A stretch of 48,404 nucleotides of DNA from an uncultured bacterium (GTDB lineage: Bacteria > Cyanobacteriota > Vampirovibrionia > Gastranaerophilales > Gastranaerophilaceae): the NCBI GenBank assembly GCA_902775025.1, contig CACYKP010000007.1, positions 1 through 48,404 of the forward strand, written 5' to 3'. Below, one piece after another: positions 16,606-48,404 of this stretch (its first letter is position 1; every line of letters begins with the position of its first letter). The notes beneath the pieces were generated by a model. That model made no database searches, was not told where the DNA came from, and saw only the letters and a list, made by a program, of their open reading frames with translations. The translations under genes were made by a program, and so were the position numbers.

Positions 16606-16656
16606 TTGTTACAATTTATCAAAAAAAGCTAAAGTTTTTAAAAAATATGCCGATAT
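16606..16656 (+). promoter_or_regulatory. Sigma-28-type (FliA) promoter with upstream TTGTNACAATTT element, copy 1
   Basis: TAAA (16630-16633, within TAAAGTTT), 15-base spacer and GCCGATAT (16649-16656) match the flagellar sigma-28 consensus TAAA-N15-GCCGATAA at 11 of 12 positions. TTGTTACAATTT (16606-16617) lies 12 bases upstream of the -35. The same pairing occurs at 24922-24972 and 48215-48276. Confidence 0.75.
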
Positions 16657-24921: not shown

Positions 24922-24972
24922 TTGTAACAATTTAGTCCAAATATTAAAGTTTTAACTTATTTGTGCCGATAT
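24922..24972 (+). promoter_or_regulatory. Sigma-28-type promoter with upstream TTGTNACAATTT element, copy 2
   Basis: TAAA (24945-24948, within TAAAGTTT), 16-base spacer, GCCGATAT (24965-24972). TTGTAACAATTT (24922-24933) lies 11 bases upstream. The leader contains AAAAGGGACAA, also found in the leader of the 48312 gene. Confidence 0.78.
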
Positions 24973-25010
24973 ATATAACAAAAGGGACAACTAAAAGGAA
25001 AAGCGATTAA

Positions 25011-26507
25011 ATGGGCTTATCAGCATCACAAGGTAGAGAATTAACATTAATAGATAACAAGCATCGAGATAATTTGAAGCTGTTACAGTTAACTGCAACT
25101 AAAACTTCTTTGGCAAGAGAGATGCAAGCTGCTTCCAGAGATTATCAGAATGCACTATCTGCAAAACGCTTACATTGGACAAACAATAACGGGATAACTA
25201 CTAATGATATTAGTTACAGTACTTTGATGCGTCCAAATTCTTCAAATATGAAGAGTCCTGTGCTTATTACAAATAGCGCAGGAAAAATTGTTTTGGATAG
25301 TAAGTATAGTGATTATGCTCAAATGTTTTCTCCTGATGGTGTATCCGGTGCAGAGTGGGGAGGTAGCGTAAGAACGGCTATTCTTTCAAAATTGACGGGA
25401 ATCCCTGAAGAAGATATTGATAATGCAGATGCAGCATCAGCAATTAAAGATTCCTCATCTGCTAAGTATACTGAAGCTTATACTGCTTATAAAGATTGGC
25501 TTGCTGCTGAAGAAAGCGGGCGTGGCGCAAATACAAAATATGTAACTGCTTCGGAATTGGGTAAACAATTGGGTAGTACATCTAACGGTGTTGATTTAGC
25601 AAAGTTGTGCGGTAAAGGAGAAAATGGTCAATATACATTTAGTACCGCAGGAGACATATCATCATTAATAAATGATATACAAAACAATTTAATTAAATAT
25701 TTTGTTGATGATGATTTGTTAGGTAAAGATAAAACTGCATTTAAGCAAGCATGTTCTGATGCAATAACCGAGTATAAAGAAATTTTATCATCATCATCCG
25801 ATGATGCAAAAGATGCAATGGGAGTATCAGGCTCTGCAGGTGATTATAAAGTTAGAATCGATACTTTATTGCTATTCATTATGGAAAAATATACAGGTAC
25901 AAGAAAAACCGATAGTTCTAATGAAAAAACTTATCCTCTCAGAGATACAACATCACCATCTTGGAAAGCTTGGCGTGATGAGTTAGACAAACGTTATAGT
26001 GCAATGTTAGAGTCGGAAACTGATTACAAATCTTCTTCTGAAGCTGCTGATACTTCCATGACGGCAGAACAAGAATCTATGATTAAATACTATGATGATT
26101 TGTTTACAGCTATAGCTGATAATGGCTGGGTTTTCGATTCAAAAATCAATGACGATGATTATCTAAACCAAATGTTCCAAAATAATGCATTTTATATAAC
26201 GACAATGAAAAAGAATGAGTGTTATGATAACACAATTGAAGAAAGCGGCAGAAATTGGAATTATGAGTATGATACAAGCTTGGCAAGTAATTTCAGTAAT
26301 ATTATTGCAGTAAATGATAATAATGCTCTCAGCAAAGCTTTAGCAAAATATGAGGATGAAAAAGCTAAAATTAATGCAAAAGAAACAAATATAGACACTA
26401 AAATTACAGATTTAAATACTGAAATTTCTGCAATAAATGAAATGTTAGAAAGTATTAAAAAAATGAAAGAAGAAAACATAGAAAGAACATTTAAGATATT
26501 TGGATAA
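25011..26507 (+). CDS. MGxxASQ-family protein, 498 aa, sigma-28-type promoter
   Basis: The protein begins MGLSASQGRELTLIDNKHRD, matching MGMAASQARLLSITARIHDV of the gene at 48312. The N-terminal ~55 residues and the C-terminal ~60 residues (AKETNIDTKITDLNTEISAINEMLESIKKMKEENIERTFKIFG) are helical with heptad character. Between them is a Ser/Asp/Ala/Tyr-rich variable region. Helical ends with a variable middle recall flagellar axial and hook-associated proteins. That is an analogy of layout, not detected homology. No signal peptide is present, as expected for a substrate of the flagellar export apparatus. I believe the family is common in Gastranaerophilales, unverified here. Confidence 0.74.
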   Translation: MGLSASQGRELTLIDNKHRDNLKLLQLTATKTSLAREMQAASRDYQNALSAKRLHWTNNNGITTNDISYSTLMRPNSSNMKSPVLITNSAGKIVLDSKYSDYAQMFSPDGVSGAEWGGSVRTAILSKLTGIPEEDIDNADAASAIKDSSSAKYTEAYTAYKDWLAAEESGRGANTKYVTASELGKQLGSTSNGVDLAKLCGKGENGQYTFSTAGDISSLINDIQNNLIKYFVDDDLLGKDKTAFKQACSDAITEYKEILSSSSDDAKDAMGVSGSAGDYKVRIDTLLLFIMEKYTGTRKTDSSNEKTYPLRDTTSPSWKAWRDELDKRYSAMLESETDYKSSSEAADTSMTAEQESMIKYYDDLFTAIADNGWVFDSKINDDDYLNQMFQNNAFYITTMKKNECYDNTIEESGRNWNYEYDTSLASNFSNIIAVNDNNALSKALAKYEDEKAKINAKETNIDTKITDLNTEISAINEMLESIKKMKEENIERTFKIFG

Positions 26508-45469: not shown

Positions 45470-46564
45470 TTATAGTAAGTTCAATGCAATACTTGGTGTT
45501 TGGTTTGCAGTTGAAAGAAGTGTAGCGGAAGATTGTTGCAAAATTTGATATTTAATATAGTTAGAAGATTCAGTTGCAACGTCAGCATCCTTAAGTGATG
45601 AGTTAGCTGATACGATGTTCTCCTTTTGTACACTTATTGCATCAACAGCTGATTCAACACGGTTCATATAAGCACCGATTAATGACGTTCTGCTTGATAC
45701 GTTTGTAATAGCATCATCGATGAATGTTAAGAATTCACGAGCAGTAGCATCATCTGTGTAAACTGCATCACAAATTGCTGTGATACAAGATTTATTTGCA
45801 CTTGTTGTTCTGTTGTCTTTCCAGTCGTAAACATTATCTTCAATCTTCTTATAACCTTTTATTTCATAGTTATATTCACGATTATCATCAGATATTTTAG
45901 TACCACCTTCTATTCTTGCTTGTAAAGCAGCAGTAGCACCAGGATCTCCCTTTCTCATGTACCATGCTTGGTTAGGACCTGTAGCCCCAGGATTAGCCGA
46001 ATTTGGATTGTGAGTTAGAAGTAATGCTGTTAATGTAGCTGCTTCGAACAAGGTATATTTTAAGTTAATAATGTTGTTCTTACCTGAATTGTTACTTACT
46101 TGAAGGTTAATACCGTTTTTAGATGTAGCTGCGATACTTGTACCGTCTAAAAGCTTAACACCATTAAAGTCAATTACTGTACACAGACGGTTAATTTCTT
46201 CCATTCTTTGTTGAACTTCTGTTCTGATTGCTGTCATTGATGAAGTTCCGTAGGTACCGTTTGCTGCTTGTTCGGTCAAGTCTCTGATACGTTGTAAGTA
46301 ATCACCAACGATATCAAGTACGCCTTCAGCAGTGTCCAATAGTGATAAACCCATTGCAGCGTTTGCTTCTGCTACATCATAACCTGAAATTTGGGCTTCC
46401 ATTAATGTTGATACTGATGATCCTGCAGCATCGTCCTTACCTGAATTGATTTTGTAACCTGTTGTTAATCTTTCCATTGCGGTGTTCATACCGTCTGTTG
46501 CTAAAGACAAGTTACGTTGCGCTGTTAATGACGCAATGTTTGTGTTGATTGTGATTGAAGCCAT
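45470..46564 (-). CDS. fliC: Flagellin
   Basis: The 364-aa protein has conserved flagellin ends. The N-terminal D0/D1 region begins ITINTNIASLTAQRNLS and includes TTGYKINSGKDDAAG. The C-terminal D1/D0 region includes RTSLIGAYMNRVESAVD and ends ANQTPSIALNLL. The central D2/D3-like part (about 165-270) is short and unique. Residues 90-104 (LQRIRDLTEQAANGT) match the region recognised by host TLR5 in Salmonella FliC (QRVREL...). It forms the flagellar filament after export by the flagellar type III system. The ATG has AAAGGA upstream and a leader of about 100 bases with two hairpins. Confidence 0.96.
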   Translation of the reverse strand: MASITINTNIASLTAQRNLSLATDGMNTAMERLTTGYKINSGKDDAAGSSVSTLMEAQISGYDVAEANAAMGLSLLDTAEGVLDIVGDYLQRIRDLTEQAANGTYGTSSMTAIRTEVQQRMEEINRLCTVIDFNGVKLLDGTSIAATSKNGINLQVSNNSGKNNIINLKYTLFEAATLTALLLTHNPNSANPGATGPNQAWYMRKGDPGATAALQARIEGGTKISDDNREYNYEIKGYKKIEDNVYDWKDNRTTSANKSCITAICDAVYTDDATAREFLTFIDDAITNVSSRTSLIGAYMNRVESAVDAISVQKENIVSANSSLKDADVATESSNYIKYQILQQSSATLLSTANQTPSIALNLL

Positions 46565-48214: not shown

Positions 48215-48276
48215 TTGTAACAATTTTCGAAAAAATAGCTAAAAAAGCTAAAGTTTTTAGACAAAAGTGCCGATAA
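48215..48276 (+). promoter_or_regulatory. Sigma-28-type promoter with upstream TTGTNACAATTT element, copy 3
   Basis: TAAA (48249-48252, within TAAAGTTT), 16-base spacer, GCCGATAA (48269-48276), an exact match to the FliA consensus hexamer regions. TTGTAACAATTT (48215-48226) lies 22 bases upstream, about twice the 11-12 bases of the other copies. The extra bases look like a duplication of AGCTAAA. Nineteen bases around the -35 (48241-48259) are identical to copy 1. Confidence 0.82.
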
Positions 48277-48311: not shown

Positions 48312-48404
48312 ATGGGAATGGCGGCATCACAAGCAAGATTGTTGTCAATAACCGCAAGAATCCACGATGTAGAGTACCAAGCACAACAGATACAGAGTAG
48401 GAAG
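48312..48404 (+). CDS. MGxxASQ-family protein, partial (3' end outside window)
   Basis: Thirty-one codons are visible: MGMAASQARLLSITARIHDV followed by EYQAQQIQSRK. This matches the MGLSASQGRELTLIDNKHRD start of the 498-aa protein at 25011, defining an N-terminal family motif MGxxASQxRxLxL. AGGA lies 10 bases before the ATG. Promoter, leader (AAAAGGGACAA) and protein start are all similar to the 25011 gene, so the two are probably co-regulated paralogs. The helical N-terminus without a signal peptide is compatible with export by the flagellar apparatus, as inference only. Confidence 0.75.
   Translation, partial: MGMAASQARLLSITARIHDVEYQAQQIQSRK

What the first reader, a model, noticed from the sequence alone, without database searches (positions are those of the whole stretch)
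25011..26507. MGxxASQ family: multi-copy, flagellar-regulon proteins of unknown role
The 498-aa product and the partial protein at 48312 share the N-terminal motif MGxxASQxRxLxL, the same type of promoter and a similar leader. The 498-aa protein has helical heptad-rich ends and a variable Ser/Asp-rich middle, as axial flagellar proteins do. Two copies within 25 kb suggest a larger family. They could be filament-associated, chaperone-like or secreted through the flagellar export system.
Basis: partly seen in the sequence, partly recalled or inferred. Interest (0 to 1): 0.62.

Follow-up and report, generated by a model that had tools for sequence, protein, structure and literature searches.

The report
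Hairpin proteins of filament-less secretion machine
The 498-residue protein belongs to a large, unnamed family that follows not the flagellum but a second, flagellum-like export machine of gut-dwelling relatives of cyanobacteria, many of which have no flagella, so its members are probably exported by, or built onto, that undescribed machine.

Summary
Window 25011-26507 encodes a 498-aa protein with no Pfam or NCBIfam match. It has a consensus sigma-28 promoter (24945) and shares an N-terminal motif, promoter and leader with a second gene cut off at 48312. The family is real and multi-copy (about 10 genes in this genome, all 33 congeners). Each member is two long conserved helices, N- and C-terminal, forming a hairpin; in this taxonomic family, unrelated middles of about 100-700 aa are inserted. 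In deeper families the core occurs alone: 21 of 21 members are exactly 109 aa. The flagellar-filament reading fails. In 156 genomes, 58 of 79 family-positive genomes have no flagellin, including 57 Gastranaerophilaceae genomes that also lack canonical FlhA. Nearly all family-positive genomes keep a second, ancient FlhA clade. In a 99%-complete flagellin-free genome this goes with FliE, FliF, FliH, FliN, FliO, FliP, FliQ, FliR, four FlgB/C/F/G-type rod proteins and FliA. A long and a short member lie near the fliE-fliF-fliH-flhA2 cluster. FliA-type promoters sit on family genes but are mostly absent from flagellins. Best explanation: substrates or axial subunits of a flagellin-free, flagellum-type secretion machine. 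Export itself is inferred, not shown.

The parts
24945..24970 (+). sigma-28 (FliA)-type promoter TAAAGTTT-N12-GCCGAT of the 498-aa gene
   Evidence: Pattern search with reversed control; Markov control.
24994..24999 (+). probable ribosome-binding site (AAAGGA)
   Evidence: Read from the sequence.
25011..26507 (+). 498-aa MGxxASQ-family gene (P0001)
   Evidence: Translation; orthologs in the genus.
25014..25157 (+). conserved N-terminal helix (aa 2-49), first arm of the hairpin core
   Evidence: AlphaFold2 model; alignments.
25158..26318 (+). inserted middle (aa 50-436); unrelated between paralog groups
   Evidence: Model; 23 unrelated middle clusters.
26319..26501 (+). conserved C-terminal helix (aa 437-497), second arm, ending NIERTFKIF
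   Evidence: Model; residue frequencies.
48249..48274 (+). sigma-28-type promoter of the second member
48312..48404 (+). 5' end of a second MGxxASQ-family gene, cut by the contig end
   Evidence: near-identical copy at the end of contig C77.

Best explanation
The 498-aa protein is one of about ten paralogs in this genome that share a helical-hairpin core (two helices of roughly 45-60 residues at the two ends) with a paralog-specific domain in the hairpin loop. They are most likely substrates of a second, flagellin-free, flagellum-type type III export machine: FlhA2, with FliE, FliF, FliH, FliN, FliO, FliP, FliQ, FliR, FlgB/C/F/G-type rod proteins and FliA as sigma factor. Proposed working: FliA transcribes many members; the conserved N-terminus (and perhaps a conserved ~272-302-aa partner beside the locus) takes the protein to FlhA2; the protein passes through the rod; the hairpin packs with its like at the cell surface, the short ~109-aa form as the plain subunit and the long forms displaying their middles, as flagellin D0/D1 carries D2/D3. 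Shown: family, architecture, promoters, co-occurrence, gene neighbourhood. Inferred: export, route, polymerisation, display.
For: (1) Co-occurrence: 78 of 79 family-positive genomes have an FHIPEP protein; 58 of 79 lack flagellin. In the FlhA tree, FlhA2 is an ancient, vertically inherited clade kept where FlhA1 is lost. (2) Neighbourhood: in flagellin-free G077 and G059 a long and a ~109-aa member lie 5-9 kb before the start of fliE-fliF-X-fliH-flhA2; about ten genomes show a member 9-15 kb from flhA2. The member plus MSYKND-partner pair is kept from f9 to f1. (3) G077 (99% complete) has the basal-body and rod genes and FliA. (4) Promoters: 84 of 141 members have a sigma-28 site with at most 2 mismatches in 16 (none in shuffles); in flagellin-free genomes 9 of 15 with at most 3 (0.3% in shuffles); 9 of 10 flagellins have only chance matches. 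(5) Features of a type III substrate: no signal peptide or membrane helix, 0.5% Cys, no proline in the ends, exchanged middles; core of exactly 109 aa in 21 of 21 members from f9, f14 and f15, modelled as a hairpin at pLDDT 93.6.
Against: No direct evidence of export. Families f10, f11 and f12 have FlhA2-clade proteins but no member found by the profile, so the tie is not universal. Genome G162 (family f8, no FHIPEP) has one borderline hit. Members scatter over the genome. The fold of a two-helix hairpin is too common to decide. FlhB, FliI, outer rings and hook genes were not looked for in flagellin-free genomes. Co-occurrence counts are not corrected for phylogeny.
Confidence: 0.6

Rival explanations
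1. They are accessory parts of the ordinary flagellum (filament-associated, cap-like or chaperone).
For: FliA-type promoters; one paralog next to fliA in several genomes and one immediately upstream of fliD in G032; the organism is flagellated, with 11 flagellin matches.
Against: Fifty-seven of 60 Gastranaerophilaceae genomes have the family but no flagellin and no canonical FlhA. Family f10 has flagellin without the family. No relation to flagellin. Flagellins mostly lack the promoter.
Confidence: 0.1
2. They are released or injected effector or translocator proteins of the FlhA2 machine, sharing a helical export module, rather than subunits of a built structure.
For: Many dispersed paralogs with unrelated middles; best Foldseek hits of the core are the T3SS translocator IpaB (TM 0.84, rmsd 1.5-2.0, E 0.03-0.08), and tip proteins IpaD and SipD appear for P0001.
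Against: Those hits are not significant, and many unrelated hairpins score alike. No enzymatic or toxin domain in ten diverse middles. A conserved C-terminal helix and a fixed 109-aa length suit an assembling subunit better than a signal. Effectors normally share no such core (general knowledge).
Confidence: 0.2
3. They are cytoplasmic coiled-coil or scaffold proteins controlled by FliA, not exported at all.
For: No signal peptide; coiled-coil helices; Foldseek brings many cytoplasmic coiled coils.
Against: Linkage to export genes, low Cys, and Thr/Ser/Asn/Asp-rich variable middles of surface-protein type.
Confidence: 0.1

Closest known systems
Flagellin and other flagellar axial proteins (PF00669/PF00700)
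   Same: Conserved N- and C-terminal helices that pair, variable insert between, many copies, sigma-28-type promoter; the modelled ends overlay flagellar filament chains at Z 8.9, rmsd 2.5 A over 106 residues.
   Different: No Pfam hit, no profile relation (hhalign probability 0.4%), different motif (MGxxASQ), present without flagellin or FlhA1.
Flagellin-free flagellar basal bodies of Buchnera aphidicola (PMC8109811)
   Same: Flagellar-type export genes (flhA, fliP, fliQ, fliR), fliE, fliF and rod genes kept while flagellin is lost (paper).
   Different: Here it is a second, ancient paralogous system present beside the flagellum in flagellated species, with its own large candidate-substrate family and a kept FliA.
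Non-flagellar T3SS (injectisome) as defined by Abby and Rocha 2012 (PMC3459982)
   Same: Homologous export gate; a non-motility role is likely.
   Different: This machine keeps fliE and rod genes, which that definition excludes; a secretin was not looked for.
WXG100/LXG helical-hairpin proteins of type VII secretion
   Same: About 100-aa hairpin, alone or with a variable part; EsxA-type chains appear among weak hits.
   Different: The variable part sits inside the hairpin loop, not behind it; the linkage found is to a type III system.

Membership tests
Flagellin / flagellar axial proteins | Flagellin_N or other flagellar axial domain by profile | tested here: not met
   Pfam and NCBIfam scans empty of flagellar models; hhalign against flagellins 0.4%.
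Flagellin / flagellar axial proteins | Paired conserved terminal helices with variable insert | tested here: met
Flagellin / flagellar axial proteins | Found only together with a flagellum | tested here: not met
   58 of 79 family-positive genomes lack flagellin.
Flagellin / flagellar axial proteins | Structural match to flagellin beyond a generic hairpin | tested here: inconclusive
   Z 8.9 with flagellar filament chains, tied with unrelated coiled coils.
Flagellar-type export machine (for FlhA2 and partners) | FliE, FliF, FliH, FlhA, FliO, FliP, FliQ, FliR and rod homologs present | tested here: met
   G077 and G059 loci.
Flagellar-type export machine (for FlhA2 and partners) | FlhB, FliI, P/L rings, hook | not tested
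Non-flagellar T3SS (Abby and Rocha 2012) | Absence of fliE, flgB, flgC | tested here: not met
   fliE present, FlgB/FlgC-type rod genes present; definition from PMC3459982.
Non-flagellar T3SS (Abby and Rocha 2012) | FlhA homolog scores as SctV | tested here: not met
   FlhA2 of this genome: 706 bits to FlhA (cut-off 772), 588 to SctV (cut-off 692); below both, nearer FlhA.
T3SS translocator or tip proteins (IpaB, IpaD/SipD) | Significant structural or sequence relation | tested here: inconclusive
   IpaB top hit E 0.03, TM 0.84; IpaD/SipD E 0.26 and above; hairpins are common.
FliA (sigma-28) regulon | TAAAGTTT-N11/12-GCCGATAA-type promoter and a FliA in the genome | tested here: met
   Use by FliA itself is not shown.

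The most novel reading that the evidence does not exclude
Non-photosynthetic relatives of cyanobacteria carry, beside the flagellum and often instead of it, an ancient second flagellum-type secretion machine dedicated to building a surface fibre or brush from a new class of hairpin subunits, in which many paralogs display different domains; FliA has become the sigma factor of this machine rather than of flagellin.
Probability: 0.4. Interest if true: 0.85.

Novelty: new variant of a known kind. Interest (0 to 1): 0.7.

Why it matters
Incomplete flagellar gene sets in Gastranaerophilales have been read as remains of lost flagella (PMC4040986). These data suggest they are instead a kept, vertically inherited second system with its own regulon and candidate substrates, in bacteria common in animal guts. 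It would give a natural case of a flagellar-type type III machine working without a filament, make the function of such machines testable, and explain why non-motile species keep FliA, rod and export genes.

Tried and rejected
Pfam and NCBIfam on P0001: nothing above cut-off. PDB by sequence, single and profile: only coiled-coil noise. Foldseek with the full model and with the core: no hit at E 0.001 or better; VIA-align gives many unrelated hairpins at like Z, so no fold-based family claim is made. hhalign against flagellin: no relation. Pfam on ten diverse middles: no catalytic or adhesion domain. The MSYKND partner: no convincing PDB match, no Pfam match for the G059 copy. The protein in the fliG position: no Pfam match and no PDB match, so it is not called FliG. 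Literature: nothing that describes a type III secretion system in Melainabacteria or Gastranaerophilales in the held library (judged from titles and abstracts only).

Full report
WHAT IS THERE. The ORF at 25011-26507 is real: 498 aa, MGLSASQGRELTL... to ...NIERTFKIFG. A second start at 48312, cut by the contig end, reads MGMAASQARLLSITAR. Each follows a consensus sigma-28-type promoter, TAAAGTTT-N12-GCCGAT, at 24945 and 48249. The genome holds 35 such sites and none for the reversed control; a Markov model of the window gives none. The 48312 gene has a near-identical 5' copy at the end of contig C77. Pfam and NCBIfam give nothing above cut-off.

THE FAMILY. All 33 congeners have a match to P0001; full-length matches are 34-48% identical. 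Among 141 starts collected from fetched loci, positions 1, 2 and 7 (M, G, Q) are invariant, S6 is 99%, and the C-terminus tends to ...NIExTFKxFS. The motif was the search criterion for these starts, so its conservation is partly by selection. A profile of the first and last 55 residues (A3) finds about 10 genes in this genome: C5, C7 (two), C18 (two and a fragment), C20, C55 (two) and C77. In family f1 the two ends flank middles that fall into 23 unrelated clusters. In families f9, f14 and f15 the same profile matches short contiguous ORFs over its full length (E to 1e-33); 21 of 21 distinct ones recovered are exactly 109 aa. The core is therefore one hairpin domain and the middles are most simply read as insertions into its loop. 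AlphaFold2 models agree: P0001 pLDDT 86 with helices 2-49 and 437-497; the 109-aa core pLDDT 93.6 with helices 3-46 and 53-108. Members have no signal peptide or membrane helix by hydropathy (one of 130 passes 1.6 anywhere), little Cys, no Pro in the ends, and no known domain in ten diverse examples.

NOT A FLAGELLAR FAMILY. Over 156 genomes of the class, 79 have the family, 30 have flagellin and 102 have FHIPEP. From the per-genome rows: family and FHIPEP 78, family only 1 (a borderline hit in G162), FHIPEP only 24. Family and flagellin 21, family only 58, flagellin only 9 (all family f10). All 60 f1 genomes have the family; only three have flagellin, and exactly those three have an FHIPEP match above 850 bits, the canonical FlhA. 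A tree of FHIPEP proteins splits into two strongly supported clades, each broadly following the organism groups: FlhA1, and FlhA2. Flagellin-free f1 genomes in the tree keep FlhA2 alone. NCBIfam scores FlhA2 below both the FlhA and SctV cut-offs, nearer FlhA.

THE SECOND MACHINE. In G077 and G059 (99% complete, no flagellin) one stretch holds a long member, a 272-aa protein (MSYKND...), a 90-aa protein and a short member of 108-110 aa, then, some 5-6 kb on, fliE, fliF, an unidentified protein in the fliG position, fliH and flhA2. Elsewhere G077 has fliN, fliO, fliP, fliQ and fliR and four rod proteins of FlgB/FlgC/FlgF/FlgG type about 4-6 kb from fliA. The window's own genome has the same sets next to a full flagellum: C15 (fliE-flhA2), C20 (a syntenic fliN-to-fliR-like run with a second FliP) and C55 (long member, 287-aa and 91-aa partners, 109-aa member). 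In deep-branching G057 the member in this position is the bare 109-aa form beside a 302-aa MSYKND protein and an 87-aa ORF. In about ten genomes the hit lists place a member 9-15 kb from flhA2.

PROMOTERS. Eighty-four of 141 members have a sigma-28-like site with at most 2 mismatches in 16, against none in shuffles; a -10 variant GCCGTAAT is common. In flagellin-free genomes 9 of 15 have at most 3 mismatches, against 0.3% of shuffles; the members near fliE lack it. All 28 genomes tested, 15 of them flagellin-free members of f1, keep a FliA over cut-off. Of ten flagellins checked, nine have only chance-level sites.

FOLD COMPARISON. No Foldseek hit reaches E 0.001. For P0001 the T3SS tip proteins IpaD and SipD recur among weak hits, and flagellar filament chains overlay the ends at Z 8.9. 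For the core the first three hits are the translocator IpaB (TM 0.84, E 0.03-0.08), but unrelated hairpins reach like Z. These are leads, not tests. Profile comparison with flagellin is negative.

WHAT IT MOST LIKELY DOES. The family is best read as the substrates or axial subunits of the FlhA2 machine (about 0.6). Shown: family, architecture, promoters, co-occurrence, linkage. Inferred: export, polymerisation, display. Secreted effector or translocator is the main rival (0.2); a part of the ordinary flagellum (0.1) and a cytoplasmic scaffold (0.1) are less likely.

LIMITS. Counts are not phylogeny-corrected. Families f10-f12 have FlhA2-clade proteins without a detected member. FlhB, FliI, rings, hook and secretin were not searched in flagellin-free genomes.

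RELATION TO THE LITERATURE. Soo et al. 2014 (PMC4040986) found complete flagellar sets in three of nine Gastranaerophilales and read the rest as unable to make a flagellum; a 2018 termite-gut study (PMC5877343) calls one species probably motile. Buchnera keeps flagellar basal bodies without flagellin (PMC8109811). No paper found describes a type III secretion system in this class.

Noticed in passing
L099:1446-3056 (G000:C24:1476-2522 match): A 536-aa protein whose second half matches the cytoplasmic half of FlhA (FHIPEP positions 321-655, 159 bits) without the membrane part; such matches recur in many genomes, flagellin-free ones included. It lies beside genes that look like skp/ompH and bamA.
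   Followed up: partly
window 45470-46564 (-) and other flagellin loci: Flagellin genes mostly lack the sigma-28-type promoter that the MGxxASQ genes carry; what transcribes them is open.
   Followed up: partly
window 16630-16654 (+): A third consensus sigma-28-type site in the window, followed by a very short ORF (MYGMWPGCYSF...) with no identity.
   Followed up: no
genome-wide, 35 sites: Many sigma-28-type sites precede small uncharacterised proteins; these may be further substrates of the same machine.
   Followed up: no
L185:8585-9403, L258:6066-6929, L193:3524-4432: A conserved 272-302-aa protein (MSYKND...) beside the family genes from f9 to f1, without a convincing Pfam match; a candidate chaperone or gatekeeper.
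   Followed up: partly
G000:C15:17977-18381 (L189): A flagellin N-terminal domain at the start of a 1801-aa open stretch; oversized or fused flagellin-like proteins also occur in G025, G003 and G028.
   Followed up: no
L114:2965-4023: A member whose start is doubled: MGMAASQARFLTMGMAASQARFLGLTARKT.
   Followed up: no
upstream of P0001 orthologs in about half of the congeners: The -10 element reads GCCGTAAT instead of GCCGATAA at a mostly constant 12-nt spacing, suggesting a lineage shift in FliA specificity.
   Followed up: partly
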